Origin: Podaxis mareebaensis
Taxonomy: Eukaryota; Basidiomycota; Agaricomycetes; Agaricales; Agaricaceae
NCBI GenBank assembly: GCA_018524725.1
Contig: JAEUWP010000314.1
Location: 1-54,397, forward strand
DNA length: 54,397 nucleotides
Reading direction: 5' to 3'
Position numbers and translations under genes: made by a program. Below the pieces are notes generated by a model. It saw nothing but the letters and a program-made list of their open reading frames with translations, had not been told where the DNA came from and searched no databases. How positions within the stretch are numbered: position 1 is the stretch's first letter; every line of letters starts with the position of its first letter. Positions 2,233 to 53,200 of the stretch are shown here, one piece after another.

Positions 2233-2234
2233 AC

Positions 2235-2597: not shown

Positions 2598-2699
2598 AAT
2601 TGGCGAGTTGGAGCAGTTGGAACGTAGTCAGTGTGTGTAGTAGTATATGAATTACAGGTTATGATGGACACCGACAAACTCGAATCTCGGCGGCTACTC

Positions 2700-3743: not shown

Positions 3744-3754
3744 CATAAAAAGGG
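3744..3754 (+). promoter_or_regulatory. TATA-like box of cysteine-rich gene (copy B)
   Basis: CATAAAAAGGG lies about 130 bases before the ATG at 3879. It corresponds to the element at 2097 in the paralogous block, in both sequence and distance. Confidence 0.5.
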
Positions 3755-3802
3755 TTCACCATTGGGTGAGACTTCCACACCGTTGTCCCCACTCAGTACG
3801 AA

Positions 3803-3876
3803 GTACGTTGCCCGTCTCTAGTCCTTTATTTATATATTAATGTTAGACCATGACAGAACTTATTAAACCCACACAG
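3803..3876 (+). other. Probable 5' UTR intron of cysteine-rich gene (copy B)
   Basis: A 74-base stretch runs from GTACGTTG to CACACAG, ending two bases before the start codon. It has the same length and position as the one before the gene at 2235, although the interior has diverged. Confidence 0.5.
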
Positions 3877-3878
3877 AC

Positions 3879-4208
3879 ATGAAAGCTATCCTCATCACTG
3901 CTTTAGCCACGTTATTCCTGGCGACACCTGTTGCCCTCGGAACCCCACTCACAAGGATCGCTACTTGGCAGGACACGTCTGGGAGTTGCTCGTTGGCTTG
4001 TCTCCCCGAGGGACAGGAATGCCCTGCAGGTTGGGATCCTTACCGGAGCGGAGAGTGCTGGACTTGTTGTCAGAATGCTCCACAGCCAGCGCCAGAGCCA
4101 GAGCCTGAACTATGCCTCCTCATTTGCGCGTCTTCAGAGCTCCCCTGTAGTAAAGGATGGAGTCCTAAGCAGTTGGGGAGTTGCTGGACCTGCTGCAAGG
4201 ACGAGTGA
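3879..4208 (+). CDS. Small secreted protein with two six-cysteine motifs (paralogue)
   Basis: This 109-residue paralogue of the gene at 2235 has a signal peptide (residues 1 to about 21, ending ALG before TPL). The two C-x3-C-x6-C-x11-C-x2-C-C motifs sit at Cys 37/41/48/60/63/64 and 79/83/90/102/105/106. The linker is a short Pro/Glu run, and the Lys-Arg site of the sister copy is missing, so this protein probably stays as one two-module chain. All twelve cysteines are kept while the loops vary, which suggests selection for a disulfide fold. It converges on the YibB-like gene 97 bases downstream. No characterised family recognised. Confidence 0.8.
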   Translation: MKAILITALATLFLATPVALGTPLTRIATWQDTSGSCSLACLPEGQECPAGWDPYRSGECWTCCQNAPQPAPEPEPELCLLICASSELPCSKGWSPKQLGSCWTCCKDE

Positions 4209-4304
4209 AGTTGGCGGCTCGTAGGAATTGGAATATGATCAATGTGTGTAGTAGTATATAAATTACAGGTCATGATGGACCTCGACAAACTCGAGTCCTG
4301 TCGG

Positions 4305-6223: not shown

Positions 6224-9200
6224 TTATAGGGCATCATATTCTTCGTCGTCATCACTTTGATTATTACTATCATCCTCTAAACTCTCTGATTCACTATCCC
6301 ATGCAACACTTTCATTGCTCTCAGAGTCCTCCTCAGCTCCTATAATCTGTCCATCATAAGTTGAGGTTTCTATGTCATCAGCTACCTCTGTGCTTTCTTC
6401 ATTAGAGGTGAAATTGCTGGAGGGGCTAGAGGGGCTTGGAGATGATGTAGCGCCATCTAGATGGCCAATACCCAATCCCAGATATCTCATGTACATATCG
6501 CGATCAACAAATCTGAAGTATTAGAGTTAGTTCTTAATGATAAGTTATTCGTTTCACACATACATGTTAATATAATAATTCACCCAGTCATCTATTTCCC
6601 CATTTGGCCTTGCCTCTGTTGGCTCTTTCCACCGTAGCAACTGCTCAGTTCGGCCTTCAACAAATGCTGGTATTAGGTGACAGCCCCGAACAACCTGTGA
6701 GGGATCAAGGAAGCCAAATGCAAAGTCGTCTGTATCAGGAACAAAGCCAAATTTGGGAAGCCTAGCTATGTGGCAATTGGACACATAGTCAGGTTCAATC
6801 CCTAGCCACTGCACCCAAAGGAAATCCATAGTCCTCCAGCTAAGATCTTGAGTGTTGATTCCCATATGCTGTACATCTGCATGGAAGACTCCAATGATGG
6901 CAGCATACCAGAAGGGGTGAGCTACTGGGTTAGCCTCTGTTTCAGGTGACATAACCATACAGAATGGATGGTTCCGGGGGTTAAGTGTGTCATAACTGTG
7001 GTGAATGTCATATGTTGTATAGTTGATACGTATAGTCTGGTGTCAGAAAACAGTATTGTTCTTGATTCAAATTGTGTTGCGATTGCTATCAGTGAAATCG
7101 TCATGCATATCGCCATCAAACTTCTGTCCTAGAATACAGCCCAATAAATAATCCTTCAGCTTGGTGATAAATTCCTGTTAGGTACCAGATCACTATTAGC
7201 TGAAAGTTCAGAGTTTCACATTAAGTAGTAAACAAGTCTTTCCTTTTTTGCAGGATCAGTGCAGTTGGCAACAAAAGTATACAGATTGATCAGGTTATTT
7301 GTTGAGTATGAGATGACGTGGTGTTTTGCAATATGCTCTGGTTTACTGGCTTCTTGTTTCTCTTGTTTTTCAATTGCATGAAAGGCTTGTTGGCGAAGGT
7401 GTTTGGTACCGATCTGGCGTAAAGAGTCCTTCTTGTTAGTTAGCTTGTAAAGGCTCTTGATTGATTGATGTGACTGTTCTGCCTATTAAATAAAACCCAG
7501 TATATTAGACCAGGCTATCCAAACTGTGAGAATTGAAGAGATGCATTGACATACCAGTTGAGTTGAGTAAGAGTCAGTAGTGCCAAATAAGCGGATGTGG
7601 GCCACGTAGTCTCCCATGAAATGAAATTTGACAGTAGCAAGGTTAAGAGCCTTTGAATGCTGGTGGCTAGAAGATCTAGAGGAGTTGGATGACGTGTTGA
7701 TGGGCTGGTTAGCCTTCTGGCATTGTCGAGCAGCCTTCTCCTGTGGAAGCTCCAAAGTTGTAAAATTTGAACTCGTATGAGCCTGAAAGTGTCGTAGTAA
7801 TTGACCAAGTTCCTTAGTGAGACTGTCAAGTAAATTAAGAGTTGTGTCGGTGTGCACCCGTAGTTTGGCAAGAGCATGCCACTCTGCAAATCTATACAGT
7901 AATTTTGTTAGATAGCGGTTATGAGGTTCGGGCAGTAGTCCTTCAAAGCATGGAAGAGCACACTAGTAAACTTATTAGTTATCATGCTATTCTAAGAATA
8001 AAATGTGGGCGTAGTATACTTTACCTGAAGTAAATCCTCAAAGTCTCGTGCAGCCATCTTTTTCATCTCAGAACAGTTAGAAGAAAACTGGCATATGCCC
8101 CTGTTACCAGTTCCAAAAGATGAGATTGAGTGATACCTGTTCTGACATTGTAAGATGCCTTAAAGAGAGCTATTATATATGTAAAAGTCACTTACCACTC
8201 ATCCAACTGGTTTACAAGGTGATTGTGATTGCTACTTGCTGCATAAAGGATGCGGATGAGATGGGTAAATAAGCTTTTCCAGGTCCCAAGCTCAATTTCA
8301 TGAAGAAGGTCAACTGTAAGCATTCTTGAGGGATTAAAGTGACCCCCTATTCACTCAGCAAAAGCATTCTAGTAAATGGCATTTTATCAGTGATTGGCCA
8401 ATTAGAGAAGGAAGTTGATGTTCTACATACAACAGTGGGAACTCCTGAGATTTTGCAGAGCAGTGCCTCAACAGCAGAGCTACGTATGGATAAGCCAAGG
8501 TTATAGATTGCTCTCTGGGCAATAGAGACATTTTCAGCTAAGTAGGAGCGGAGATTCTTCGCTCAAATGGTCTCATCGTGTCTGAGCCCAAGGTTTGGAA
8601 GTTCAGATTTGGATACCAAACACCTTGGGCATGGGAAAAGGCCCTTGTCACGAATTGTAGCCAATAGAGCCCTACAGAAAATCATATAAGACAAGGAGAG
8701 TACAGAACATATAGATTCATAACTCACTTTTCTGGATAATCAGCAGAATAAGTAAATATGCGTGGATATACACAACACTCTATGCTGTCAATGCATTTGA
8801 TGACAATTCCATACTTGTAGGTGTGAATGAAGTTGTCATCAAGTAAGGTATGCCAGACTGCATGTACTAGCTCACAGCAGCAATGAGCTAGGATGTCAGC
8901 CTTTTGGGAGTGCCAGGAAGAGTGAAATAGTGAAACAAAATTTTGGAATGAGTCAGGAAGCTAAAACTGGATATGAGCTGACTAGAAAACTAGAGTGTGT
9001 TCAATGGCCTACTGTGGGTATATATGCCAAATGGTGTATAGCACTAGAGGGTTGCTGAGATCGGACGTATTTTGAGATGTTCCCTAACATCATATATATA
9101 GGCCAGGCTTTCGTGTTGCCAAAGTCTGCCAGATGGGTTGCATCTGAAGCAAACATGAGAGCTGCGACAGTCTTTTCACGCCTACAATGGGGATCATCAG

Positions 9201-10427
9201 GAGGTAGCTTTCCATGCAATTGAACGTCCTCGTGTTCTGCAAGAAACGCATCTGAGGAATATATCTCACCATAAACATGTTCATTGCCTGTCTCCATATT
9301 ATGGAAGAGTTTGAAGGGAGAGTGGTGAATGAGATGAGCAAGAGGATCGTTATATGCTTCCTGGATTACAGACATGAGTTTTCGGTGGAGTAGACCAGGA
9401 ACAGAGAACTTTCTTGGAGGAATAGCAGATGATCCTGACGGAACATCAATTTCGACTGACGTTTCATGAAAGTGACCCCAGAAACCTGAATTCTGAAGTT
9501 CCCTATCCATCCTCTTGTTCTCTTGACACGCATTAAAGTTGGCCATGTCTTCAATGCAAAAGTCAGGTGATAGAACCCAGTCTTGAACCAGAGCATTTGC
9601 CTCTGACTCTGACTTTGATGTGTTTCTGTTGTTTAGCCATGCCATGAATTTCTGGATTGTTTTGTTGGGAAAAGGCCAGTGTGAGGGCTTGTCAGTCATG
9701 AAAGTAGCAGGGGGTTGAGTTGGAATAGCATCGGCAGGAGGGGGATTGGTAGTGTGGGCATTGGAAAGATCTTTGAGGGTAATGCAGTGATCTGGGTCAA
9801 AAGATGGACACCAGGGGTAATCGCGCCATAGGCCAAATTGATTTGCCACAGTTTGCAGGTGGTCCCGTACAATAAGCTTGACACAACGAATTAGGCCTGA
9901 TGGAGGGATAGGTTCTAGCTGACAGTTTTTTGCTGCTGGTGGAACAGGAATGAGAGGCTCTGGTAGGATGTCTTGAAACCGTTTTGGTAAGTGATAATTG
10001 TGTCGAGGTCTCCCTGATGATGTGATGGGAAAGGGAGGGGAGGATGAGCTGGCTGTACCATTGATGGATTCCAGTGGAGGGGCTTCTGAATATATAGAAG
10101 GTGGAGGGAAATTAAGAGTATCCAAGTCTGAGCTGATTATGTTGTGAGCTGAAGATTCTGGAGACTAGAAATATGCTATCAGTGAGTTTGTCAGGCATTT
10201 TGTAACCAAACAGATTTTACCTGTTCAGAACTGCATACAAGAAGATCAGAAGCCTGAACTGAGGAGGCTTTTGAGGGGTTGCCACTAGATTGAACCTCTT
10301 GTGACCGTTTGTGGGCTCGCAGAAGGTGGAGGCAGGTAGCTTGATGTCGAGTAAGAGAAACAGACTTAAAAAAGCTTTGCCCACAGCTCGTCACACAGAA
10401 GTGCTTGCCAGGTTGACTGGGGGGCAT
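6224..10427 (-). pseudogene. Plavaka-type (CACTA-like) transposase, multi-exon, decayed
   Basis: Read from 10427 down. An N-terminal zinc finger (CVTSCGQSFFKSVSLTRHQATC region) is followed by a linker, then FNACQENKRMDRELQNSGFW, FASDATHLADFGNTKAWPIY, the split AYIPT / LPDSFQNF with an intron between, YPRIFTYSADYPEK, GLFPCPRCLVSKSELPNLGL, DLLHEIELGTWK, KFHFMGDYVAHIRLFGTTDS, and finally RLPKFGFVPDTDDFAFGFLD with RGCHLIPAF. The acidic C-terminus ends at 6224. This order is that of basidiomycete Plavaka transposases. Conserved introns are still visible. In-frame TGA codons fall where relatives have Arg (NTI-stop-IKNN near 7070, ETI-stop-AKN near 8560, AE-stop-IGG near 8350), and Arg pairs read Cys-Cys (HCCCELVHAVW, IECCVYPRIF). 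The protein is therefore broken. Confidence 0.85.
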
Positions 10428-10646: not shown

Positions 10647-12614
10647 CTACTCAAGTATTTCTCCTTCCTCCAACTCCCTCTGTATTCTGTTGTATTTCAA
10701 TTCATCTAACATGCTCAGTAAACCCAGCCCTCTTTTCCACCTATCTGCCTTCTGCTTCATGACAAGCATAAAGCCGTCTGGATCCTCCTTCTGAAAGACA
10801 GCCTCAGTCCTAAACCTGTTGTCGACGTGCCTGAAAATGCCTCCTGGGCTATAGTGGGTGATAGAGGCCCTTGTCTCATGGGAGCAAACGGGAATGTTGC
10901 TGTGTTCAATTGTGGCTGAAGGGAATAAAATAGCAGAGGCCGAGGGAAATTCAACAACCAGCTTGAGGTCATGGAGTACAAGATGGCCACCGCGAGTAGG
11001 GTCAAAGCTCCCTAGGGCCAAAACTGCACACCAACCAAAAGGGAGGTTCATGAAGTCACGATGTCGAACTGTGGAAGCCTTGGGCAGGCTGTTGGCAGAA
11101 GCATCAGCAAATACGCTTTGGGTGCTAATTCTCCGAAGTGGTTTCAGGTGTGGATGAGAAAAAATCTTGTCCATGTATTGCTGGTAGTACTGGTACAGGT
11201 TTGGTGCCCACAAGCTGAAAGCAACTGGTTCTGTGCCAGAGAGCAATTCTGAATGAGCAAAAGTGAAACACATCCGAAAAGAAAGGACTTACAGTTGATG
11301 AAGCCTAGGGATCTAAGGAAAGGCTGGAACTGAAATAACTTCCACATCATGTCATGTAAGGGGCCTAGCTTCAAATTATGGATGTATGTGTCACCCTGGG
11401 CATAGGTGATTCCAGTGTCAACAGTAGGATAATCTCCCCAGTGGTGTTTTCGATTGGAGAGGGGAAAGTCTACCTCAGCAGCATACCAGCTCATAAACTC
11501 ATGGAGCTTAGCGCAGTCTTCAAGGTAAGTGACATCTCCCTTGGGTCTGCCAGCAAGGACAGCGATCACCCTGCCGTCTCCATCAAGTAGTGGCATAGGC
11601 AACTCTCCTTCAGGTGTGTTATAAGCAACAGTGTTGAGCTGGAAGTTGGCAAAGTGAAGAAAGCCTACCTTTCCAGGGAACATAGCCATAGCCCTGCAGA
11701 AGGTAGTAGTCTATGCTGTTTTCTGTGAGGGCATTGCAGGACTCCTGGGCTGGCATTGCAGGACCAGAGTCACCCTTCTTGGAGGAGCGGAGTGCAAGAT
11801 ACCCACATTTAGTGACTGATAAATTGTCTGTGCAGAAGTCGGTACGAATTGGAATGCTTTGAGAGGCAAATTGTGTTCAAAGGGATTTCACAACAACATA
11901 ACTGCCTTTGCTAATTGAGGAGTCCCTGTCCCGGGTCCTCTTCAAATGACGAGCAGGGATGGCCCTCCCATCCACAGCAGTAGGGCTGGCCTTGGGAGGT
12001 GGTAGGGACTCTTGAGAGTCGGGTGTAGGGGAGTTGGGAGTAATGGAGTCGGGAAGGGCATCGGGAAGAGCGTCAGGAAGAGCATCAGGAAGGGTGTCAG
12101 GAAGGGTGTCAGGAAGGGCATCAGGAAGGGTGTCAGGAAGGGTGTCAGGAAGGGTGTCAGGAAGGGTGTCAGGAAGGGCATCAGGAAGGGTGTTGGAGGT
12201 AAGGGAATCAGAAGTAGGCATAAGAGAGCTAGGTGCAGGGGACTCTTGAGAGCAGGACATAAGGGAGCCAGGTGGAAGGGACTCTTGGTAGTCAGGTGTA
12301 AGGGCAGGCGGCATGGCAGTAGCAAGCTGCATAGACGTTGAAGAGGTTGAGAGCTGGGTGGAATCAGGGGAGCCTGGGGAGCCAGCAGGGAGTTCACATA
12401 AGTTGGAAGGCTGCCGAGCTAATGAGGAACTTCATTTGCACTTGACTCCCTGTACTGGTAGGCGGTCCAAGCCACAAACTGCCTGCTCCAGCAGGAGTTC
12501 AACTTCAGCAGCTCTCCTCGAAAGAGAAGCAAAGGCATTAGCACTGATGGCCCGGACTGCATAGACGCATTCGTACTGCTGGCCAGATCGTGACTTCAAG
12601 GAATAAGCTGGCAT
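10647..12614 (-). pseudogene. TET/JBP-type 2-oxoglutarate/Fe(II) dioxygenase, transposon-linked
   Basis: The catalytic C-terminal part (11273-10647) shows the HxD iron ligands (VRHRDFMNLPFGWC), FDPTRGGHLVLHDLKLVVEF, the distal His in SATIEHSNIP, and the 2-oxoglutarate Arg in ETRASITHYSPGG, all intact. Upstream (11689-11290) is the family's conserved IAVLAGRPKG block and GDYPTVDTGITYAQGD. The N-terminal half holds a basic stretch (RAIPARHLKRTRDRD) and a Leu-Pro-Asp repeat. Such dioxygenases, related to enzymes that oxidise 5-methylcytosine, are known to be expanded in basidiomycetes next to KDZ transposons. TGA codons at 12432 and 11877 interrupt the N-terminal frame, and the intron near 11290-11256 does not join cleanly in phase, so expression as one protein is doubtful. 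DNA as substrate is inferred from family. Confidence 0.75.
12047..12190. repeat. 12-bp minisatellite, 12 units, inside dioxygenase gene
   Basis: Twelve tandem 12-base units (variants of tcaggaagggtg and tcaggaagggca) encode, on the - strand, Leu-Pro-Asp-Thr or Leu-Pro-Asp-Ala repeats in the N-terminal linker of the dioxygenase. The unit is a multiple of three, so length changes keep the frame. Confidence 0.9.
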
Positions 12615-37694: not shown

Positions 37695-37829
37695 AGTGTT
37701 AGGGGAACTAGATCCTTCGTATAGCAAATTTAAATACCTTCGATAAAAACTGAATAGTGTTTGAAGCAGAGGCCATAGCCCAGTTGATTAGGACTGCTGG
37801 AAGTTCTCCACCAGCATGTTGGCAGCAGT

Positions 37830-38505
37830 TGTTACACTCCTTTCACTTCCACCACCATCTATGCCTCTTTCACATTCCCACCTCGTCATTCGTCAGTTTC
37901 ACACTCCCACTTCATCGTTCGACAGCCGCCTTGCTGCCTCTTGACTCCAAGCATCCACCTTGACCTGTCTTCCATTGCAACTCCGGTTCCACCTCAGATC
38001 TTCCGAAGATGCACTATGTTTAGCACTCAGGCTTGGTGATATGTCATGTAATAATAGCTTGCCTTCTGTAGATCTCATCTTACCTTGGGCTTGGTCTTCT
38101 ATACTTAGAGTACTGAAGTAACTACGAAGATTCTCCTTTAGGACATGTAGAATAGCAATTGCCCTCGTATTTAGATAGCTCGTAAAGTAAGTAGAACTTA
38201 GCTTTACGATCATTTGTACATAGCGCGAGAATAGTGAGGACTGTCTTCCACTTTATCTTCTTGCTGCATGAGAGCTCTACCTGCCTCGACAGGATAACTG
38301 GTGTAACAGCTAAACCTATGGAGTAGCCTGTGACCTTACAAGTCGTATCTCTCCCTAGGCAGTCCCTGCGAGATTTCCAGCCAGCCTCTAGTTCTCTCTG
38401 GAGAATGGACGGGCATTCTGCTTCAGGAACTTAATAGTGCTGGGGTGTCTTAGGACAGTATCTCTCCGCACTGAGACGATGTGTAGAAACCGTCTCTACA
38501 TAACA
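37830..38505 (+). repeat. 5' LTR of Ty3/Gypsy element 1
   Basis: 676 bp, TG...CA ends. Compared base by base with the 3' LTR it shows 30 mismatches and no indel; all mismatches fall in 24 dinucleotides of the CG/TG/CA class. Confidence 0.95.
38168..38210 (+). promoter_or_regulatory. Probable LTR promoter and RNA start of element 1
   Basis: TATTTAG at 38168 lies about 30 bases before TAGCTTTACGAT (38199-38210), which is complementary at 11 of 12 positions to the block just after the LTR. This fits a TATA-like box and the RNA 5' end of a self-priming element. The start site is inferred. Confidence 0.4.
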
Positions 38506-38507
38506 GA

Positions 38508-38519
38508 ATCATAAAGCTA
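38508..38519 (+). promoter_or_regulatory. Primer-binding block of element 1, complementary to LTR RNA start
   Basis: ATCATAAAGCTA begins three bases after the 5' LTR end. Its reverse complement TAGCTTTATGAT matches LTR 38199-38210 at 11 of 12 bases. I saw no match to a common tRNA 3' end, but the check was by eye only. Confidence 0.5.
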
Positions 38520-38752
38520 TACTTCCACTCCTTTCTTTCTCTTTCGTCCTCATGGCTACGAGTTGACCCGAGTCTCCTGCAAGATAATTTCAGTGGAGCA
38601 TCCTTGGCCAAAGTCTCCTGCAAGATAACTTCAGTGGAGCACCCTCCAACCTTTCGTCCAGACCATTGTCCAACACATCTTGTTTACCCCTGCCTATCAC
38701 TAGGTGAACACCATCCAACCTGTATCCTTGACTCCCCCCTCCTTCTTACTGA

Positions 38753-41029
38753 CCCTTCTCTGATTCCCGTTTCACAGAAATCCAAAACCTCCTTCAGAGA
38801 GCACACTCTGAGAGCGACTTTCGAAATCAACTCGATAACTACACCCGTGGTACAGAGAATATAATCCTTATCAATGGCAAATCCTACACAAAACGAGAGC
38901 TACTAGGAGTCTACTACACCCTCTGTTATTCATGAGAAGGTGAAGCAGAACTTCCCAAATCTCCACTTGGTGTTTACCAAGACACCGACATCCTTCTTCG
39001 CTACAAGCTCCAGCACAGCTGGCAGTTTGAGACCCTTCCCACCTTTGTCGAGCATCCCACTCTCTTTGCACAATTTGAAGAACACTTTCAGCAGGCCAAG
39101 CAAGCCCAAAGTCTACATCTCCATTGGACAGGTTCCCCTCAAGAGATCGACCAAGCTGAAGCACTTCTCAGAGCTTTCAAATGCCATTTGAGCCATCGTC
39201 AGTGCACAACTACACCGGTACCCCTTCACTCAACCGCTACCTCAACCACCTTCCCTTCAACTGAGCAGACGGCTATCAGAGAGTCCAAACCCTCGAACCC
39301 ACTGCAACGGTTCCAAATTATCGAACCACCATCATATCATTCAACTCGACCATCAACCCCAGAACCAGTCCCAACCAACACTACCTGAACTGTTTTGCAC
39401 AGGCGTACCACATTGCTAACTGAGCAGTCAGAATCACAGAGTTCTACGTTTGCATCTGCAACGAGTGTACAACCCAAGACCCAGATTGATACACCTTTGC
39501 CCCTATCTCCGCACTCGTGGCTAGGACCAGATACATGGCCTTCCTCGAGGTACCCAGAAGTGCAAACTTCACCCTCAGTACCCATTACCCAAACCTCCGA
39601 TACCTTTGGAACCAATGAGTTACCATTGTCTTCATCCCAAACCCCAATGCCGACCGATACTACACCTCTGAGCCAATCTACTACAGAGATGCAGAGGCCA
39701 GAGTTACCTATCGATCAGACACACCTACAGAGACTGACTCCTCTGACACCGAGAGTACCAGGTACTACATCATCGACCTTGACTCTGTTTAATCAACCAC
39801 CATCTTCTCCTCCTCCTCCTAACCCACCACAAGGACCACCCACTCATCAACAGAACGCAGCTATGGCCACACCCAAAGCCCCGAAAATTCAACCATTTGA
39901 TGGTGAACCCCGCAACTTCCAAATGTTCCAGGATCAACTTCGACTTGTCTTTGATGACCATCGAGCCGCATTTCAAAATGCACAGAATAACATCAACGAC
40001 TGAAAGAAAATCCTTTACATGCTCCAGTACATGACCAAAGGCAACGCTGCTGGATTCTGCAATGCTTTTATGAAAGAAAAGTGGAATACCACCAATAACG
40101 CCTACAAGTATGGTACTTGGCATGATTTCAACATCCGACTTGAAGATCATTTCAAACTGAAGATTGAAGCCACACAAGCTACTGAAAAGCTTCGACATGC
40201 TCGTCTCAACATCTCCAAGATGGACATCACTGTCTTCAATCAGATGTTCACTTACCTTCTGAGTCAGGCGAACATTACTGATGACAATCACAAAGTTCAT
40301 CTCTACGTCGACTCTATTCCTGACTGGGTACAGTGACAACTCTATTTAATGACTCAACCTCCCACTACCTACGCCCAATGGCAAGCCGATGTTGCTAGGA
40401 TTGTTAATAACTTCCAGCAATATCAGATGCGCAAGACCGGCAGAGGACCCTCTTCACAACTATCTTATTTCAACGACGCCTTTAATGATGCCCCTCGAAA
40501 CAAATTCGTCTACAAAGAGCACCAACTCCCACCAGGTGAACCCATGGATATCGACGCACTTGAAGAATTCTCTTCCGGAGACGAAGAAGAAATACCCGAT
40601 TTCTCCTCAGACGAAGAAGATGACTACACTAAACAAGGCATCTCAGTAAATGCCATCCTGACAGATCGACAACAAGACCGAATGAAACATGGAGCATGCA
40701 TCACCTGTGGTAACATGAACCACTGGGCGCGCTCATGCCCCCTTCACAGGAACTGACAATCTCCCATGAATCAGAGACGGTTCCAGAAAGGAAAGCGACC
40801 CTCTTCTCAGCCATCGGCCTCAACTTCCTTCTCCTCCTCAAATCGACCATGTACTTCTCCTTCTTCTTCTTCTTCTTCTAATTCTTCTCCATCCTGTCTT
40901 AATACCCTTAACGCAATCAAAGTTGCTTTCACTGAAATGACTGCTGAAGATCAAAACAAACTGGCTAACCATGCAATGGCCAAGATCGTTGAAGAAGAAC
41001 AACAGTCTTTTCCGCAAGGACCAGAGTAG
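38753..41029 (+). pseudogene. gag: Gag of Ty3/Gypsy element 1, interrupted by TGA codons
   Basis: One frame runs to a genuine TAG at 41027-41029, with internal TGA at 38933, 39386, 40001, 40334 and 40754. The N-terminal part is unusual (LLRYKLQHSWQFETLP and other non-gag-like sequence), followed by a Ser/Thr/Pro-rich linker. Then comes the capsid-like core (FDGEPRNFQMFQDQLRLVFD, LYMLQYMTKGNAAGF), an acidic stretch and a CCHC knuckle (CITCGNMNHWARSC near 40700). The true start is uncertain. Pol follows in the -1 frame with a 37-base overlap (40993-41029); no canonical slippery heptamer was seen there. Confidence 0.8.
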
Positions 41030-44000
41030 AGGCAACACCTCTGAGTCCTTCTGAGTCTTCGAATTCTAGTACAAACCTTGAACCTCCTTTCAATATACAG
41101 AACCATTATGACTCTCATTGGACTGCTCAAAAATATCTTGCTCATAAAATAGAAAGTAGGAAACTGTCTAGAGAACCTCCTGTACCAGCTACAGCCTTGA
41201 ACTCAGATCAGATTTCGACTACCCACTCTTCTACCAAGCCAATGATAGCTGAAATCTGCTTGTCAGCATCGACCAACAACAAATCCCTGTATATCCCAGC
41301 CATACTAAAGAATCTGAATTCTTCCACAGTTGCCACTATTTACCCACTACTTGACAGCAGTGCTCAAGGAGACTTCATCTCTCCCTTGACCGTTCAACAG
41401 CTTGGGTTAAGAACGATACCCTTGACTAGACCCATACCAGTATGAAATGTCGACGGTACTATGAATGTAGGCCATGCCATTACTGCACAAGCAGAATTGC
41501 AGCTACACATAGATAATCGTGACATAGACATTACTTGCTATGTTGCAGAGATCGGAGAGTGACCGATGATCATCGGCCTCCTGTTTCTCGAAAAACACAA
41601 CCCTGACATTGATTGGACGAAACATACCTTTCGATGGCGAACCAGGAGATCTAAGATCCCTGCCATAAATATCGATAACATGGATACCAAAAATGAGATC
41701 CAGATCGATCATATCCAGTTAGCTGAAAAGGCAACTGAGAATGTTCCGCATTCCATCTGCAGGAAAGCTAGACTCGATTATGAAGCACAGCTTGACCTAG
41801 CACACGCTACCCTAGAGATCAATACCAAGATCTCAGAAGCACAGAAGTCCTATCAGGCATACCACGGCTCAAAGAAGTCAGTGGATCCGAAGGACATCGT
41901 CCCAAAAGCTTATTGGGATTATCTAAACCTATTCAGTGAAAAGGAATCGGAAAGATATCCTCCTTCACGACCGTATGATCACAAGATCGACCTAAAACCA
42001 GACTTTAAACCTGAAGCAGCTAAATTGTACCGCTTGATGGACAATGAACTGTTAGAGTTAAAGCAATTCTTAGATGATAACCAACGAAAAGGTTACATCA
42101 GGAAGTCTGAAAGCCCGCAAGCTGCACCCTTCTTCTTCATATCGAAGAAAGATGGAAAGCTGCGACCCGTTCAGGATTACAGACATTTGAACCAATTCAC
42201 GGTGAAGAATGCATATCCTATTCCTTCTATTTCTGGAATACTAGATCGCCTCAAGGGCACCAAGTATTTCACGACTCTTGATATTCGTGCAGGATATAAC
42301 AATATCTGCATTCGAGAAGGTGACCAATGGAAAGGCGCCTTCCGAACCCCTTTTGGTCTTTTCGAACCGAACGTCATGTTCTTCGGAATGACTAACAGCC
42401 CAGCCACATTCCAAGCAATGATGGACCACATATTTCGTGACCTGATAGACAAGCCTGGATGCACTGCAGTCATTGTCTACATGGATGATATCCTTATTTT
42501 CTCCGATGACCTCTCTTCTTTGTGAAAAGAAACTCGTGAAGTTTTGAAGAGGCTAAGAGAGAATGATCTCTATGTCAAACCCGAGAAATGTAAATTCGAA
42601 CAGACATCTGTTGAATATCTTGGGATGAACATTTCTCATAATCAGATCAGAATGTCGAAAGACAAACTGGCTGGTATCAAAGATTGGCCTAGACCGAAAT
42701 GCGTCCGAGATGTACGGAAATTTATCAGCTTTGCTAACTTTTATAGGAAGTTCATACATCATTATTCCCACCTATGCGCCCCTCTCAATGCACTCCTCTG
42801 AAAGAATCAAAACTTCAAATGGAACGACGCTGCAGAGCAAGCCTTCACAGCCTTGAAGGAGACCTTCCAGAGAGAACCCCTCCTTTGTACACCAGATACG
42901 TCCAGACCCTTCATCATCGAGACCGACGCTTCTGATTATGCCACTGGTGGAGTACTTATCCAGAAAGATGACAATGGAAATGAACACCCATGTGCATTCC
43001 AATCAAAGTCATTAACCCCAACAGAGCGAAATTACGCCACTCCTGATAAAGAACTCCTGGCAATCAAGCAAGCCTTCGATGAATGGCGCCACTACCTACA
43101 TTCCGCTCCCTACGAAATCGAAGTTCAATCGGATCATGACAACCTCTGACACTGGCAAGACACCAGAAAACTATCGAAACGACATGTCCAAACCTGGGTT
43201 GAATTGCAGGAATATAAATTCCACATTAAACATTATCCAGGCAAGGCAATACCAGTCGCTGATGCACTCTCTAGACGACCAGACCATGAAGTTGACAAGT
43301 CAAAAGAGAACATCGACAGAGTCCTCCTTCCGAAGGAGCTCTTCGTCAACGCTATCACAGCAGACGGTACACCAACTCCATCACCATCACTCCAGACTGC
43401 ATCACAATCACCTTCCCCATCACAACCATTGTTAGATGAAAAATGCGAGATCCTCACAAGACATCACGATCATCACTCTGCAGGACATCCCAGCATTGAC
43501 GAAACAATTCACCGAGTCCACACAGAAACTGATTGGCCAGGCCTTCGAGGCTTCATTTGAAATTATGTTACAGGCTGCCATATCTGTCAACAATTCAATA
43601 TTGACAGAAGACCCAATCACCCTTCCCTTCACCCCCTGGAACCATCACCATCATTACGTCCCTTTGCAGACGTGTCCATGGACCTTGTCACAGGTCTACC
43701 CGAGACCACAGAAGGCTATGACACCATATTGTCTGTGGTGGACTGCAGACTTACAAAGGGGATACTAGTACTACTGACTACAAAAACAGTGACCTTTGAA
43801 GACATAGCCACCTTGCTGACAAAGCACTTCTATCCACACTATGGAATTCCCACCTCAATTGTAGCAGATCGAGATCCAAGATGGGCAGGGAAAGCTGCTA
43901 AAGCATTTTATTCCACCTTAGGAATCAATTTACGACTATCCACCACCTACCACCCTCAATTAGACAGAGCAACAGAACGATCGCACCAAGAACTCGAAGT

Positions 44001-44763
44001 ATACCTATTGAAGTATTGCTACAAAGATCCCAAGTCATGGGCTGACAAACTGTCACACTTCGAATACAAGTATAACTCAACCACACATGCCAGAAACAAG
44101 AAGACACCATTCAAGCTTCTCTACGGATACATTCCCCCTCCTATTCCTGAACTCCTCATCCAAACCAATGCCCCTGCATTGAATGAACAACTATTTGATA
44201 TAGATCAATCCCGATGCAATGCTGCAGAAGTCATAAAGGAAAACACTAAACAAATGATCACCCGAAGAACGCCTCGAACTGAGACATACGAGAAAGGTGA
44301 CAGAGTTTGGTTAGATGCTAGAAACCTTCCATTACAGGAACAGAAAGTGAAGATTTGTCCCCGAAGATATGGCCCCTTTACTGTCAAGAAATGAAAAGGA
44401 CCACTCGCATACGAACTTGCCTTACCTACTGCATGGAAGCTTCACCCCACATTCCACGTCTCTCTCTTGAAATGATACAAGAAGACTGACCAGAATATCT
44501 CCGAACCCGAGCCTTCTCAGCCGGAGTTAATAGACGGAGAAGAAGAGTATGAAATCGAATCTATTATTAACCACAGAATTCGCTGAAGCCGAACTGCCTA
44601 TCTCGTCCACTGGAAAGGTTATCTGAATTCGGACAACACCTGGGAAGATGAAGAAAACCTGACAAGAAACGCTTCAAAGATTTTAGTAGAATATAAGAAA
44701 AGACATTTCATTCCTCCATTCCAAAAGCTCGCCACTTTCAAACCCACTCATGTCAAATGCTAG
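40993..44763 (+). pseudogene. pol: Pol of Ty3/Gypsy element 1, interrupted by TGA codons
   Basis: In order: protease (LLDSSAQGDFI near 41350, where DSG would be expected), reverse transcriptase (YMDDILIF near 42480), RNase H (FIIETDASDYATGGVL), integrase zinc region (HH...C-x2-C, CHICQQ) and DDE core (SMDLVTGLP, VADRDPRW, ATERSHQELE), then a chromodomain (YLVHWKGYLNSDNTWEDEENL region, near 44610-44660). TAG stop at 44761. Nine internal TGA at 41443, 41560, 42523, 42799, 43147, 43558, 44392, 44473 and 44584; no TAA, TAG or frameshift. Several TGA fall where Ty3 relatives often have Arg. The integrase TDG-type motif reads LDRAT, fitting GAC-GGA to GAC-AGA. Confidence 0.9.
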
Positions 44764-46387
44764 TTCCTTCTCTGTCAATGATTATGCCACCATCAAGCCA
44801 GCAACGTCCAGACTGGAAAGCTTCACAGAGCTCCTCCATGGAGACTCTCCGACCAGAGGATCTGATGGTGACTATGTCACGATGTCTCCCTCGGACCACC
44901 TCGAGTTCACTACCATCCAGAGTGAACCATCCCCAATCACTAGTACCAACCCGTTCCATCAACATTCATTCACTCATCCAACATCTATGACACCTACCTC
45001 CGATCCACTACATGCCAGTCTTCCAAACCACACAACGACTGTTCCAGAAGATGAAAACTATCAGAATTTCCTTCGACAAGCCCTTGCCACCACTCCCCAA
45101 AGGAACCCAGATTGTCATCCATCGGGACAACACCATTGAGTGCTGGACCCACGAACATCTGGAAATCCGACTGATCTCCCCCATCCATATAACCCCTCGA
45201 GTAATATCTACCAGACCGCTACCTCCCTTGCCCAGGCTGCTGGTTATCCAAATGCAGCTGATGTACTTACAGACCCGAGAAGCTGGAACCCACCAGCTCT
45301 GGAACCAGGGGATGAGTTATGGTTTAATTTCTGAGACACAGCTGACTGAGCAACACAACCCCTCTACAATGTCACTTCACAGTACAGAACCCAACATCAG
45401 GTCCAGTATGCAAAGAACCTTGTCAGACAGGCGTGCACCTTCCTCACTGCCACCTCAACTGCAGAGACCCCTGCCTTCATCGCCTCACTCCATCAACAGT
45501 ATGGAAGCAAGCACACCACGGCACACTCTTCCACCTCGAACCCCTCCTCCTCCACTCATGCCCAATGTGCAGAGATGGATCGAGTATCTCAGTCTCAAGA
45601 GTCCAGTACAACAGATACTGGAAGCCGAACACGAGTTACACCAGAGAACTACCCCTGGCAGTATCAACAAGATTGAGGAATCCTTGTTGCTGAGGGAAGA
45701 GCCTATTCCCATCGAGCACAAACCGACCCATTCGTCCCAGAGACCCTTCAGTCTCGAGCTAAGGCTTCAGTCGAACAGAAGCCTGACATCGCCACCTACC
45801 CGAACTTACCAACCCTCATAAACGTCTTGACTCTGCAAGGAGAGTTGAACCCCATCTCCAAATACCCCAACTGGGAACACCACATTCGACGACGAACTCT
45901 TCCTCTCACCATCACGAAACTTCTCCCTCCCAATCTTCTCAGAGTATATGCACAAGGCTGTTGGCTTTGTCTAGGAGTAGGGCATATCACCTCAGACTGT
46001 CCTAACCACATGTGCTGATTCTGTCAAGGACGAAATCACCACTCTTGGCAGTGCATTCAACATCCTCAAACTCCTGTCATCCCATCTCACTACCAATCCC
46101 CTGTCAATGGCCCGACATATGAAGAAGCCAAGAAGTGTGTCTGGTTTCTCACCAACGCTCTGACTCTTGGCCAAAGAGGACAACAGAATATGTTGTATGA
46201 AGACACTTTCACCCTTATCCCTCGACCTATCCCTCACGATTGTGGAGCATTAGAGAATACCACCACTGAGTATACTTTCAATCCTATCACGAAGCAGACC
46301 AAAGGACGACATGTCACCACTAACAACGTCCCCATCCAAAATCAGTCCAAACGACGCCTTGCAGAGATTGACACCTGTTATAGGTAG
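44750..46387 (+). pseudogene. Third ORF of Ty3/Gypsy element 1: paired zinc-knuckle protein
   Basis: An ATG at 44750 overlaps the end of pol by 14 bases. A single frame of 545 codons before the stop reaches TAG at 46385, crossed only by TGA at 45137, 45332, 45347, 45674 and 46016. The first two thirds are Ser/Thr/Pro-rich and low in conserved motifs. The C-terminal third has CWLCLGVGHITSDC (CCHC knuckle), followed by a second C-x2-C-x4-H-H-x3-C motif with a TGA in it, then a charged tail. The position is that of env in retroviruses, but there is no signal peptide or membrane segment. Element 2 has a counterpart, so it is a lineage feature. Nucleic-acid binding is inferred. Confidence 0.7.
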
Positions 46388-46421
46388 ATCGATCTGGAGT
46401 TCGATTACACAAAGGGGATGA

Positions 46422-47097
46422 TGTTACACTCCTTTCACTTCTGCCACCATCTATGCCTCTTTCACATTCCCGCCTCGTTGTTCGTCAGTTTCACACTCCC
46501 GCTTCATCATTCGACAGCCACCTTGCTGCCTCTTGACTCCAAGCGTCCACCTTGACCTGTCTTCCATTGCAACTCCGGTTCCACCTCAGATCTTCCAAAG
46601 ATGCACTATGTTTAGCACTCGGGCTCAGTGATATGTCATGTAATAATAGCTTGCCTTCTGTAGATCTCATCTTACCTTGGGCTTGGTCTTCTATACTTAG
46701 AGTACTGAAGTAACTACGAAGATTCTCCTTTAGGACATGTAGAATAGCAATCACCCTCATATTTAGATAGCTCATAAAGTAAGTAGAACTTAGCTTTACA
46801 ATCATTTGTACATAGCATGAGAATAGCAAGGACTGTCTTCCACTTTATCTTCTTGCCGCATGAGAGCTCTACCTGCCTCGACAGGATAACTGGTGTAACA
46901 GCTAAACCTATGGAGTAGCCTGCGACCTTACAAGTTGTATCTCTCCCTAGGCAGTCCCTGCAAGATTTCCAGCCAGCCTCTAGTTCTCTCTGGAGAATGG
47001 ACAGGCATTCCACTTCAGGAACTTAATAGTGCTGGGGTGTCTTAGGACAGTATCTCTCCGCACTGAGACGATGTGTAGAAACCATCTCTACATAACA
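46422..47097 (+). repeat. 3' LTR of Ty3/Gypsy element 1
   Basis: 676 bp, colinear with the 5' LTR, same ends, followed by the target duplication GCAGT (47098-47102). Confidence 0.95.
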
Positions 47098-47102
47098 GCA
47101 GT

Positions 47103-48057: not shown

Positions 48058-48482
48058 GATCCTTCTCTGTAGCATGGAGTTGTTACCTTGTCTCAGCTGC
48101 TCAGCATTGATCACTGAAAGAAGCCCTACTTGAGCAGCTAGTGCTTTAATTTTGGGTCCTAGTTTCTGAAATTAGCATTAGAAAGAGAGTAGGCGTGCAT
48201 TGCCAACTAGTGCAGATTAGTTGAGGATTGTAGTCCCACAATCTAAAGGAAATTCCTTGACAGAACTTTGATTCTGGAGGATATTTCAATGAGTGAAGGG
48301 AATCACACTCATGATAAAGAAGTGATTACGCTTAGATAGAGCTATAATCTATCAGGATATAAATTTCCATTGAAAAGTACCACTGAGAAGAGGCATTGCT
48401 GTGGATGCTCAGTTATTGAAAGGGAAAGGAAATTTATTAAAAGTGAAAATTTAAAAGTTGCCAAACTGGATAATTCAAAATT

Positions 48483-50204
48483 GTGAAAACAACCACATTC
48501 GACAGTCCGACAAGAGGAAAAGTCTTCAAAGATCCCACAACAGGAGAGTGGTATTACAAAGACGCAAGAAATAAACCCCACTTCTTCGAAGGTTCAATCC
48601 AAAGAAGACTCAACGAAGAATATTCAGCAGAAGTCCAATATGAAAACCTTTCAAGACAAGATCAGCAACAAATTGATGAAATTCAGAGAAACCCTGAAAC
48701 CGAAAACCAATTTGCAGGACTCGCAGCAACACTTAACACACTGCAACAGGTCTCAAGACAACCAAGTGTCAAAGAAGTCACCGAGGATCTTGCCAGATTC
48801 AATCTCTCCTCTCAAACAAAAGGAAAGCAACCCCAATCTTCATCATCTATTCAAGAGCAAAGATATTCTAGCAATCCAACAACAACTGCTCAATCAATAC
48901 CAGGGACTGGATATCAGTTCTCTTCCTTGGCCGGAACAGCAGTACCACAAGCAACAACTTATCAGTCAATTAGCAGATCTTGGGGAACAAATCCGAGAAC
49001 TCCAGCTAGAAGAAGAACAACTTCAGGAAGTTCAGGAAATCACAGAAGAAGCCCTTCACCTCCACAATCTCCAGGAGCTACCATGTCTGCAAACCAGAAC
49101 ACCAACTTTGAGTACCCAAAGCCTATGAGGTTCTACGGAGACCCTGCACAGTACAGAAGTTGGAAATCCCTTGTTGAGCTATACTTCAAATCCTATGGCA
49201 TCACTGATCATGCCACAAAAGTCAACTATGCCCTTGCTCTACTCGATGGAGCAGCATCAGCATGGTGACAGGATTATCTTTCAATGCATGCGAGAGATAC
49301 AACTCAACGAACATGGGACGAGTTCACAAATGACCTCAACCAGTCTTTTGCCCCAGTACAACAGACATTTGAGGCTGAACAGGCATTACGAAACCTCCAG
49401 CAGCATGGCAGATATATCGAGGAATATATCTCAGAATTCTCAGTCCTTGCTTCCCAAGCAGGACTTACAGACAGTGTGGCCCTTTGGGCATACTTTGCGA
49501 ATGGACTTGACCCTGCTGTCAGACACAAAGCACTTAGAAGTACCACAGACACAATTACACAGTGGAAGAATGCAGCAAGAAATGCCCATAGAATTGTTCA
49601 GGAACAACGCAAGTATAGAGCAGCAATCAACAGAAGAATTTCCTACACAAAGAAAGGACAAAGGAAAACAAAAGGCTACAGAATCCAACCCCATTATCAA
49701 AATATCACCTCCCAACCAGTCTTACCTCAATACAGGAGAAGCAAGTGGGATATGGACATTGATCATCTCACTGACTACTTTGACGAGCTCAGATTCTCTG
49801 ATGGAGAATATGAGCAGGATTCTGATGAAGAAGAAGAAGAAAATGAATCAGAAGACATACAAGATATACAACCTCCCAAACCAGGAGTTCATAACAGTGA
49901 AAGAACGCCAAGTGACGCCATATCACACCTCATTAACAATGTACTTACCGACAAGCAGCAAACAGCAATCAAAAACGGAGAATGTTTCTTTTGTAAGAAG
50001 AAGGGACATTTCTACAGACAATGCCCATCTAGAAGAAATTACACCACAAAGAACAAGCAAAATAATTTTGTATCCAAAGGAAAACCAAAGAAAACCTTCA
50101 CCAGAAAGAAAAGACAAGTCGATCCAAACGCTATGGTCTATGCCATCGAAAATGGAATAGAAGATGAACAAATGGAAGAATTTTCTCAAGATGAAAATTT
50201 TTGA
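48483..50204 (+). pseudogene. gag: Gag of Ty3/Gypsy element 2
   Basis: The frame is open from 48474 to TGA at 50202, with one internal TGA at 49266. The N-terminal part is Gln/Ser-rich. The capsid region includes FYGDPAQYRSWKSLVELYF, WDEFTNDLNQSFAPVQ and IEEYISEFSVLASQAGL. An acidic stretch and a CCHC knuckle (CFFCKKKGHFYRQC, near 49985) follow. There is no AUG at the 5' end of the frame: a GTG sits at 48483 and the first in-frame AUG is near residue 200, so initiation is unclear. Confidence 0.85.
50195..50204 (+). promoter_or_regulatory. -1 ribosomal frameshift site, A AAT TTT before gag stop
   Basis: In gag frame the bases read A-AAT-TTT-TGA, a canonical X-XXY-YYZ slippery heptamer directly before the stop. 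The pol frame (-1) has TGA at 50192-50194 and opens exactly at 50195, so pol can only be entered here. Confidence 0.8.
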
Positions 50205-53200
50205 GTAGCTCAGAAGATCAGCTTAACATCGTTGATCTTCATGCATCTAAAGGAAAATGTCTACTAATTCCAACAGAAATACTAACACCCAAAGGAACAT
50301 ATAAAATCAAAGCATTATTAGATTCAGGAGCCAGTGGCCAATTTATATTGCCAAAATTAGTCAAGAATCTAAATTTAACCAAGAAGCCACTCAAGAAGAT
50401 ACAATATATTTATAATGCTGATGGATCAAGAAACTCAGGAACAAAAACAACACATTATGCTGAAATCAAAATCAAGATTAATGATAAGATCATGAATATA
50501 AAGCCTAAAATAATCAATCTAGGCTATAAAGAACTATTTATAGGTATCTCATGGTTACGAAAATACAACCCAGATGTAGACTGGGAAAGAAAAACATTAA
50601 AATGGTGCGATGAAGAATCGCAAACCATACAACTAACTGAATATAAATCTAAACAGATGATTAACAGTATTGACCTTAGTCAATATATAGATTCAGAAGA
50701 TGACGAAGAAGATCTAGAGATAAATGTTAAATATAACACAGCTCAAGATCTCTACAACAAAACAGAAGAAACCAAAAAGAAGGAATCTGATCCTTTGAAA
50801 GTAGTACCAAAGAAATTTCATAAATTTCTCAAGGTATTCAGTAAAGAGAAATCAGAAAGAATGCCACCAAGACGTCCTTGGGATCATAAAATCGAAGTTG
50901 ATGAAACCTTTATTCCAAAACGAATGCCTATCTACCACCTCACACCTCAGGAACGCAAAGAACTAGACAAATTCATAGAAGAAAATTTACGAAAAGGATA
51001 CATTTGTAAATTGCAATCACCAATGGCCTCATCTTTCTTCTTTGTAGGAAAGAAAGGAGGAGATTTACGCCCTTGTCAAGACTATTGCTATCTTAACGAT
51101 CACACAATTAAGAATGCTCATCCAATTCCTAACATCTCAAGAATAATGGATAAACTTAAAGGAGCCAAATATTTCACTAAACTAGACGTTCGTCTAGGCT
51201 ACAACAATGTCAGAATTCGAGAAGGAGATGAATGGAAAGCAGCTTTTCAAACCCCAAATGGTTTATACGAACCCACAGTCATGTTCTTCGGCATGACAAA
51301 TTCACCTGCTACATTCCAATCTATGATGGATCATCTCTTTCAAGAACCATTGTCTAAAGAAGAAACCATTATTTACATGGACGACATTCTCATCCCAGCT
51401 AAAACTATCAAAGAACTCGATCGCTATACAATTAAGGTTCTAGAAATTCTAGACAAAAACGATCTCTATCTAAAGACAGAAAAATGCGAATTTGAAAAAC
51501 AACATCTAGAATATTTAGGATTCATAATCAAACCAGACTCCATTGAAATGGATCCAATAAAACTCAAAGGAATAGAAGATTGGCCTATTCCTCAAACAGC
51601 AAAGAACATTCGACAGTTCATTGGTTTTTGTAACTTCTACAGAAAGTTTATCAAAAATTATGCCCAAATTGCACAACCCTTACATGCACTTATGCGAAAA
51701 ACAAAGAAATTCGAATGGAATCCAGAAGCACAAAAGGCATTCGAACTTCTAAAACAACAATTCCTACAATGCCCTGTTCTATCAATGGTAGATGAAAACC
51801 AACCATTCGAAATAGAATGTGATGCATCAGCATATGCTATCGGAGCAGTCCTCCTACAAAGAGACTCAAATGGAGATAAACATCCAGTAGCATACTTCTC
51901 TAAAGCACTAAACCAAGCCGAAAGGAACTATCATACTTCCGACTGAGAATTCCTTGCTATTATTGAAGCATTGAAGGAATGGAGACATTACTTGGAAGGA
52001 TCTGCACACCAAGTAATCATATGGTCAGATCATGAAAATCTGATCAGATGGCGAGAACCACAACAACTTAGTCATCAACAAGCAAGATGGATGCTATACA
52101 TGACTAAATTTAACTATGTCATCAAACATCTTCCTGGCAATCAAAATGTACTAGCAGATGCACTTAGTAGAAGACTGGATTTAGTACCTGAAGGAACTGA
52201 CAATGAAAATCTGATAGCCATCCCATCAGAAAAGTTCATTAACTTCCTTTCTGAAGACCTAAAACAAGAGATCATCAAAAAGAAGTCAAAAATCCACATG
52301 CAAGACCGATTCACATCAGATGACAAAGATTTCATCCGATTCCAAAATAAGATCATCATACCTGATGACCCGGATATCAAACAGAAAATTTTACAATTTG
52401 TACACGACCATCCTACTTCAGGACATCCAGGAATAAGAGATACATTACAGAAACTTCAAAAAGAAGTTTATTGGCCAGGAATGAACACTTATGTTCACAA
52501 CTATGTGAAAGGATGCCCAACATGTCAACAATACAAAATTAATCGACATCCAACAAAACCTCCACTACAACCAATCAAAGGACCAACTTCTACCCATCCA
52601 TTCAGTCAAATTTCCATGGATCTCATCACAGATCTACCCCCAGATGACGGATATGATGCTATTTTGTCTATAGTGGACCATGGACTTACGAAAGGGATAA
52701 TCCTAACAGCCACACAGAAAACTGCAACCTCTGACGACATTGCCGAAATCCTAATTGAGAAAGTCTTTTCCAAATATGGAACACCTCAAAAGGTCATCTC
52801 AGATCGAGACCCTAGATTTGCAGCCAAATCAATGTGAGAATTCTATAAGAAGCTAAACATAGAACCAGCTATGTCAACCGCTTATCATCCGCAAACTGAC
52901 AGAACAATGGAATGATACAACCAAGAAATAGAATTCTACTTAGCTGTTTATACTTCAAAGAATCCACACTCATGGAGAAGAGCACTACCCATAATTGAGT
53001 TTGTTCACAATACTAAACCACATGCAGGAAGAACAAACACACCATACGAATTGATATTAGGCTATAACCCTAAGGCAGTCATAGAAAGCAAAGAAGAATC
53101 TAAAGTACCTTCAATCAATGAAAAGATTCTATCTTTAGAACAAATGAGAGAAGCAGCACTTGAAGCACATGAACAAATGCGAAAAGTAATGGCTGCTAGA

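What the first reader, a model, noticed from the sequence alone, without database searches (positions are those of the whole stretch)
37830..47097. LTR pair diverged only at CpG sites: 30 mismatches, none outside CG/TG/CA, no indel
Aligning the two 676-bp LTRs column by column gives 30 mismatched bases in 24 dinucleotides. Every one is CG versus CA, CG versus TG, or TG versus CA (the last implying an ancestral CG hit on opposite strands in the two copies). No non-CpG base differs. Ordinary 5-methylcytosine deamination, at a few tens of times background, should leave many non-CpG changes in over 600 sites at this level of CpG loss. The pattern suggests an intense CpG-specific RIP-like process soon after insertion. 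Flanking bases are mixed (CCG, TCG, ACG, GCG), unlike the TCG preference described for rust-group fungi. CpG methylation of repeats is established in Coprinopsis; a RIP-like mutational burst in mushroom-forming fungi is, to my knowledge, not well documented.
Basis: seen in the sequence. Interest (0 to 1): 0.9.

Follow-up and report, generated by a model that had tools for sequence, protein, structure and literature searches.

The report
CpG-only decay clock in mushroom retrotransposons
The two ends of this mushroom retrotransposon differ only where C is followed by G, and other retrotransposon copies examined in the genome show the same decay, hundreds of times faster than other changes and apparently building up step by step rather than in one burst.

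Summary
It holds across the genome's sampled LTR pairs. Thirty-one pairs give 517 CpG-type dinucleotides and 37 other changes; without one saturated pair, 509 and 21, so a CpG cytosine changes about 470 times (bootstrap 303-836) faster than a non-CpG base. One genic duplicate gives about 2. Decay spans pairs without any difference to CpG-free copies. Hits in the two LTRs agree without excess scatter (p 0.89), match hits inside the element (r 0.94), and show no significant strand (p 0.11, 0.60) or spatial (p 0.86) coordination. TCG is hit about half as often as other contexts. This favours a steady, site-by-site, probably methylation-linked process over a RIP-like burst, by a modest statistical margin. 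CpG-biased transposon decay is already reported in Ganoderma, Tricholoma and Rhizoctonia; I met no report of this ratio or clock-like behaviour (searches in the Full report section). Passive deamination with poor repair and a slow enzymatic mutator cannot be separated here. Methylation was not measured.

The parts
37830..38505 (+). 5' LTR, 676 bp; 12 of 32 visible ancestral CpG sites hit (6 CA, then 6 TG)
46422..47097 (+). 3' LTR, 676 bp; 18 of 32 visible ancestral CpG sites hit (14 CA, 4 TG)
37825..37829 (+). target-site duplication GCAGT, left copy
47098..47102 (+). target-site duplication GCAGT, right copy
38506..46421 (+). internal region of the LTR retrotransposon, CpG O/E 0.59
40349..40756 (+). 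gag-like ORF ending in a CCHC zinc knuckle (PF00098, E 5e-4, just below the curated cut-off)
41566..42525 (+). reverse transcriptase ORF (PF00078, E 1.8e-25)
43561..44394 (+). open frame that looks like an integrase by eye; no Pfam match at 1e-3. Its place after the reverse transcriptase suggests a Gypsy-type order.
   Evidence: reading of the translation

Best explanation
The LTR pair is an ordinary copy in a genome where retrotransposons lose CpG, and almost nothing else, at a steady and very high rate. After insertion a copy is probably CpG-methylated by the DNMT1-type and DNMT5-type enzymes that this genome encodes. Each methylated cytosine then independently becomes T, on either strand, at about 300-800 times the rate of other bases, until no CpG is left. 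Shown here: CpG specificity, the ratio, the contrast with one genic duplicate and with the CpG content of gene-rich stretches, the range from untouched to saturated, no detectable coordination between sites and strands, and lower rates at TCG. Inferred: that the hit CpGs are methylated, and that deamination with little repair is the chemical step.
For: 31 LTR pairs give 517 CpG-type dinucleotides against 37 other changes; 30 unsaturated pairs give 509 against 21, a ratio of 468 per cytosine (Poisson 306-757, bootstrap 303-836). Lambda runs 0, 0, 0.14 ... 1.88, then the saturated C240; non-CpG changes rise with lambda (rho 0.49, p 0.006; log-likelihood -32.2 proportional against -33.8 independent). 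Hits in 5' and 3' LTRs are not overdispersed (chi2 19.1 on 28, p 0.89). The LTR hit fraction predicts the hit fraction at 56 strictly internal sites in 17 copies (r 0.94). No significant strand coordination: 301 of 580 neighbours against 286.5 expected (p 0.11); 296 of 606 against 298.7 in the copia 3' region (p 0.60). No spatial clustering (p 0.86). One genic duplicate: ratio 2.1 per cytosine. In-frame stops in all 77 copia RVT_2 matches: 123 TGA, 21 TAG, 15 TAA (tally); in 29 of the 30 best loci 36, 3 and 2. Two DNMT1-like, one DNMT5-like and one DNMT2-like gene.
Against: No methylation data exist for this genome, so the link is inferred. The ratio is far above what I recall for ordinary methyl-CpG decay (about 10-30). 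A thymine-DNA-glycosylase-like gene is present, so poor repair is not explained by loss of that gene. The preference for proportional over independent accumulation is modest: 1.6 log units in 30 pairs and only 0.5 in the first 26; the two pairs without any difference, chosen later, add to it. The window's own 5' LTR shows 6 CA then 6 TG (p 0.001) and one of five distance bins (200-700 bases) has 15 of 18 same-strand neighbours (p 0.008); I take both as chance among many tests. C374 has an internal CpG O/E of 1.04 although its LTRs carry 11 hits.
Confidence: 0.62

Rival explanations
1. An active, CpG-specific mutator coupled to the DNA methyltransferases (or to TET/JBP oxidases) works at low intensity over many divisions or meioses. 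It is a slow, CpG version of RIP, comparable to the Dim2-dependent mitotic mutator of Zymoseptoria.
For: The ratio of about 470 per cytosine is hard to get passively. With fungal substitution rates of 1e-9 to 1e-8 per site per year (recalled), it implies 5e-7 to 5e-6 CpG hits per cytosine per year, near the unrepaired chemical rate of 5mC deamination (recalled, about 2e-5 at 37 C and several-fold lower at 20-25 C). A TDG-like gene is present. Seven Tet_JBP matches exist. Dim2-dependent mutation in mitosis is shown in Zymoseptoria (PMC8016269, passages). TCG is under-hit, which could reflect a sequence-reading step.
Against: In Zymoseptoria the mutator hits CA, not CG. Nothing here requires an enzyme. 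TCG could simply be less methylated.
Confidence: 0.27
2. A RIP-like burst: each new insertion is mutated heavily at CpG in one or a few sexual cycles soon after insertion, triggered by repeat recognition.
For: Almost no non-CpG change accompanies heavy CpG loss in many pairs, for example C154: 19 CpG-type sites, 13 of them TG/CA, and 0 other. A model in which non-CpG changes are independent of CpG loss is only 1.6 log units worse.
Against: Graded hit levels; equal hits in the two LTRs; no significant overall strand or spatial coordination; correlation with non-CpG change. Two pairs show no difference, one of them in a family of three copies whose 96% partner is heavily hit. An 81% identical genic duplicate of about 1.3 kb is not CpG-depleted.
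Confidence: 0.08
3. Artefact of assembly, gene conversion or damaged template DNA.
For: None found; reads were not available to test it directly.
Against: The same pattern holds in LTR pairs of several families on many contigs. Stops in copia reverse transcriptase frames are mostly TGA. DNMT loci and gene-rich stretches in the same assembly have normal CpG content.
Confidence: 0.03

Closest known systems
CpG mutation signature of transposons in Basidiomycota with Masc2/DNMT1-type enzymes (PMC4352252; also Microbotryum, PMC4469406; passages seen)
   Same: C to T bias at CpG in transposons, DNMT1-class enzymes present, methyl-cytosine deamination proposed
   Different: PMC4352252 gives signatures per TE copy against a consensus or high-GC copy; its basidiomycetes are Puccinia, Melampsora and Microbotryum. 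Here it is measured on LTR pairs, with a rate ratio, clock tests and context, in a probable member of Agaricaceae.
RIP-like CpG hypermutation in Agaricomycetes: Ganoderma sinense (PMC4457147), Tricholoma matsutake (PMC6980582), Rhizoctonia solani AG8 (PMC4014442); passages seen
   Same: CpG bias in Agaricomycetes; in Ganoderma almost all affected TEs are methylated
   Different: Ganoderma also uses CpA as second choice. In Rhizoctonia genes are hit as well and CpG is about 40-50% of C/T changes. Here the CpG share is 509 of 530 differences and the genes looked at seem spared.
Dim2-dependent mitotic mutator of Zymoseptoria tritici (PMC8016269; passages seen)
   Same: methyltransferase-linked C to T in transposons, over 95% of mutations in methylated regions, running through mitosis
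   Different: targets CpA, not CpG; other enzyme class; experimentally shown there, inferred here
Neurospora RIP (features recalled, partly stated in PMC4352252 passages)
   Same: C to T transitions that disable repeats
   Different: CpA target, RID-dependent, premeiotic, repeat-triggered; the burst signs tested here are absent

Membership tests
Repeat-induced point mutation (Neurospora type) | C to T transitions in repeated DNA | tested here: met
   509 CpG-type against 21 other differences in 30 LTR pairs
Repeat-induced point mutation (Neurospora type) | CpA as preferred target | tested here: not met
   nearly all hits at CpG; 17 non-CpG transitions in 30 pairs
Repeat-induced point mutation (Neurospora type) | RID-class methyltransferase | tested here: inconclusive
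   The PF00145 search gives four loci: DNMT5-like, DNMT2-like and two closest to DNMT1 among solved structures. No tree was made, and intron-split genes can be missed.
Repeat-induced point mutation (Neurospora type) | burst in one sexual cycle, hitting both partners of a duplicate | tested here: not met
   graded hit levels; one partner with identical LTRs and the other heavily hit. Indirect evidence; many low-dose rounds are not excluded.
Repeat-induced point mutation (Neurospora type) | premeiotic timing | not testable with these tools
   needs crosses
Methyl-CpG deamination decay of transposons in Basidiomycota | CpG specificity and confinement to transposons | tested here: met
   LTR pairs; one genic duplicate with ratio 2.1; CpG O/E. 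The genic side rests on one duplicate and few loci.
Methyl-CpG deamination decay of transposons in Basidiomycota | DNMT1-type and/or DNMT5 enzymes in the genome | tested here: met
   the RFD domain was not tested
Methyl-CpG deamination decay of transposons in Basidiomycota | the hit CpGs are methylated | not testable with these tools
   no methylation data for this genome
Methyl-CpG deamination decay of transposons in Basidiomycota | rate excess of ordinary size (about 10-30, recalled; not a strict criterion) | tested here: not met
   about 470 per cytosine, bootstrap 303-836
TCG-biased RIP-like mutation of Microbotryum and rusts | preference for TCG | tested here: not met
   TCG hit 112 of 927 against 526 of 2525 for the other contexts (odds ratio 0.52)

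The most novel reading that the evidence does not exclude
Mushrooms of this lineage run a slow but relentless enzymatic CpG mutator on transposons: a steady, methyltransferase-coupled counterpart of RIP that reads CpG, avoids TCG, spares genes and erases every CpG in a copy over time. CpG loss between LTRs would then be an internal clock several hundred times finer than ordinary substitutions.
Probability: 0.27. Interest if true: 0.82.

Novelty: new variant of a known kind. Interest (0 to 1): 0.55.

Why it matters
A CpG-to-other ratio of several hundred is far above ordinary methyl-CpG decay (recalled) and close to what unrepaired deamination would give, so it asks whether mushrooms leave transposon T:G mismatches unrepaired or mutate them on purpose. 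It gives a very fine molecular clock for young insertions, where ordinary substitutions are still zero. It also warns that scans based on AT content can miss the process: in Agaricus bisporus (Agaricaceae) RIP was judged absent from AT content (PMC7473861, passages), a test that CpG-only loss moves little; the 12 and 18 hits in the window's LTRs change AT content by only about 2-3 points of 676 bases.

Tried and rejected
Strand-coordinated runs as a sign of a burst. The window's 5' LTR shows 6 CA then 6 TG (p 0.001) and C70's 3' LTR has p 0.018 among 18 LTRs, but over 9, 23 and 31 pairs and in the copia 3' region there is no significant overall excess. Of five distance bins, one (200-700 bases, 15 of 18) reached p 0.008. 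Rejected as chance among many tests.

Loss of T:G repair as the cause. PF03167 found nothing, but the TIGR00584 model found two collinear pieces on C110, and the fetched stretch matches solved G/T mismatch-specific thymine DNA glycosylases at E 2.8e-6, so a TDG-like gene exists. The failed PF03167 search shows that intron-split genes can be missed here. HhH-GPD was searched but not followed up.

TCG preference as in rusts: the opposite is seen. The context test reuses the same LTR positions in many copies, so its p-value is optimistic; the copia 3' region agrees in direction (TCG 0.21, others 0.25-0.32) and includes the 3' LTRs, so it is not fully independent.

Coprinopsis as the host: the best named hits of one window protein are Macrolepiota fuliginosa (73%) and Leucocoprinus leucothites (62%), and none of the 120 listed is identical.

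Rows dropped. In one search, 3 of 12 tried pairs (C310, C251 Gypsy side, C336) had no partner LTR where expected. In one search, 4 minus-strand copia pairs failed because I had the wrong orientation; they were repaired. In one search, 3 of 7 (C345, C163, C101) did not align. C317 was cut to 494 columns and restored to 649. C240 is saturated and left out of rate estimates. In one search one of 30 RVT_2 loci (L066) was left out of the stop count; the lower-ranking rows hold relatively more TAG and TAA, and all 77 rows are tallied. Pairs came from top-40 similarity lists and from four further copia elements chosen by me, so very old copies are under-sampled.

Mended: the CpG O/E range of gene-rich stretches, the stop tally, the weaker 26-pair comparison, and results against the reading.
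Full report
What is there. The window holds an LTR retrotransposon with 676-bp LTRs at 37830-38505 and 46422-47097, a 5-bp target duplication GCAGT on both sides, a reverse transcriptase ORF at 41566-42525 and a zinc knuckle upstream. The LTRs differ at 30 bases in 24 dinucleotides, all CG/TG/CA, with no other difference and no indel.

Is it special? Two LTRs are identical at insertion, so their differences arose afterwards. I fetched LTR pairs from the same genome (37 Mb, 429 contigs): ten pairs of the window's family (the window included), seventeen of a copia family, and four from three further copia families (with loci; analysed). In 31 pairs and 18,378 columns there are 517 CpG-type dinucleotides and 37 other changes; the 27 pairs and the four show no indel. 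Leaving out C240, whose CpGs are all gone or unshared (no CG/CG column, 16 other changes), 30 pairs give 509 against 21. With hits on both copies allowed for, a CpG cytosine changes 468 times faster than a non-CpG base (Poisson interval 306-757, bootstrap 303-836), and about 204 times faster than non-CpG transitions per G or C. The window pair is unremarkable in this set: about one non-CpG change is expected, none is seen.

Where it acts. CpG O/E in 1-kb bins of the window is 0.71-1.01 over 0-6 and 20-35 kb, and 0.10-0.73 elsewhere, where the transposon ORFs lie; 60 TE loci, some overlapping, range from 0.0 to 1.04 and five DNMT loci from 0.84 to 0.98. Four loci, three distinct elements, hold no CpG in about 3.3-3.7 kb. 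A tandem duplicate in the window (81% identical, 1271 columns; both copies encode relatives of protein P0001) gives a ratio of only 2.1 per cytosine (37 CpG-type, 152 other). This is the only genic control, and it is under coding constraint. In-frame stops in the 77 copia reverse transcriptase matches are 123 TGA, 21 TAG and 15 TAA, as loss of CGA codons would give.

Burst or clock. (1) Hit levels form a series from 0 (two pairs) through 0.14 to 1.88 per CpG site and then saturation, and rise with non-CpG changes (rho 0.49, p 0.006); a proportional model fits better than an independent one by 1.6 log units, a modest margin. In the first 26 pairs alone the values were rho 0.40, p 0.046 and 0.5 log units. 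(2) Hits in the 5' and 3' LTR of an element agree without overdispersion (p 0.89). (3) In 17 copia copies the LTR hit fraction predicts the hit fraction at 56 strictly internal sites (r 0.94); internal sites were polarised by the majority state. (4) Neighbouring hits show no significant strand agreement (301 of 580, 286.5 expected, p 0.11; 296 of 606, 298.7 expected, p 0.60), and hit CpGs do not cluster in space with margins held (p 0.86). (5) Low-copy elements: C365 has no close second copy in the search and identical LTRs. The C166 family has three good matches; C166 has identical LTRs (9 shared CpGs), while the 96% identical C123 is heavily hit (66 sites hit only in C123, 9 only in C166). 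A pairwise, repeat-triggered burst would be expected to strike both. Many low-dose rounds cannot be excluded by these tests.

Context. TCG cytosines are hit 112 of 927 times, others 526 of 2525 (odds ratio 0.52), with the same direction in the copia 3' region. This is opposite to the TCG preference reported for Microbotryum (stated in PMC4352252, passage). TG and CA products are balanced (309 and 329).

Machinery. The PF00145 search finds four loci. Exon pieces match chain 7r76 (listed as DNA repair protein Rad8, E 4.7e-124; I recall it as Cryptococcus Dnmt5), DNMT2 and DNMT1. That resembles the toolkit described for Agaricomycotina (PMC13297926, passages). A TDG-like gene lies on C110 and seven Tet_JBP matches exist.

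Mechanism. I favour CpG methylation of inserted copies followed by independent C to T change at each methylated cytosine with little repair (0.62). Methylation here is inferred; in Agaricus bisporus, of the family Agaricaceae, CpG methylation is almost confined to transposons (PMC7473861, passages), and in Marasmius repeats average 0.75 methylated while source copies of active elements are low (PMC9674265, passages). Using recalled constants, the implied rate of 5e-7 to 5e-6 per cytosine per year approaches the unrepaired chemical rate of 5mC deamination, so either repair nearly fails on transposons or an enzyme helps. An enzymatic version (0.27) has a precedent in Dim2-dependent mitotic mutation in Zymoseptoria, which however hits CA (PMC8016269, passages).

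Known or new. CpG-biased decay of transposons in Basidiomycota is known, with methyl-cytosine deamination proposed (PMC4352252, PMC4469406, passages), and RIP-like CpG patterns are reported in Ganoderma, Tricholoma and Rhizoctonia (passages). My ten searches (the lists were capped) listed no paper whose title or abstract start reports an LTR-pair CpG ratio in mushrooms; Horns 2012 was not held, and of the papers cited I saw passages only. New as far as I could see: the size of the ratio, the clock-like behaviour, TCG avoidance, and the point that AT-content tests would miss this.

Host. One window protein finds Macrolepiota fuliginosa (73%) and Leucocoprinus leucothites (62%) as best named hits, both Agaricaceae, so that family is likely; the species is not identified.

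Noticed in passing
window 48474-52834: A second Gypsy-type element (protease, RT, RNase H and integrase zinc-binding domains; rve match with one TGA) follows the first towards the window's end.
   Followed up: partly
window 9004-10164: A Plavaka transposase ORF (PF18759, E 1.2e-16) lies in the CpG-poor stretch at about 6-20 kb.
   Followed up: partly
window 1969-3284 and 3604-4900, gene on the minus strand up to about 5667: Tandem duplicate, 81% identical, not CpG-depleted; both copies match protein P0001, whose relatives are widespread in Agaricales, two of them named glycosyltransferase family 15 in the list.
   Followed up: partly
L010, L049, L121 (G000:C365): A copia element with no close second copy found, identical 159-bp LTRs and a 1453-aa open frame is nonetheless CpG-poor (30 CG, 230 TG, 244 CA in 3128 bases): perhaps a lineage that persists with few CpGs under this mutation pressure.
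   Followed up: partly
L017/L061, L026, L034: Old-looking transposon loci with no CpG at all in about 3.3-3.7 kb.
   Followed up: no
window 12039-12287: Short tandem repeat array with units 80-89% alike.
   Followed up: no
G000: Seven Tet_JBP matches, four of them with stops, in a genome with strong CpG decay.
   Followed up: no
L041, L117, L118 (G000:C374): A copia element with 11 CpG-type differences between its 365-bp LTRs (8 in the 5', 3 in the 3' LTR) but an internal CpG O/E of 1.04 and a 1550-aa open frame.
   Followed up: partly
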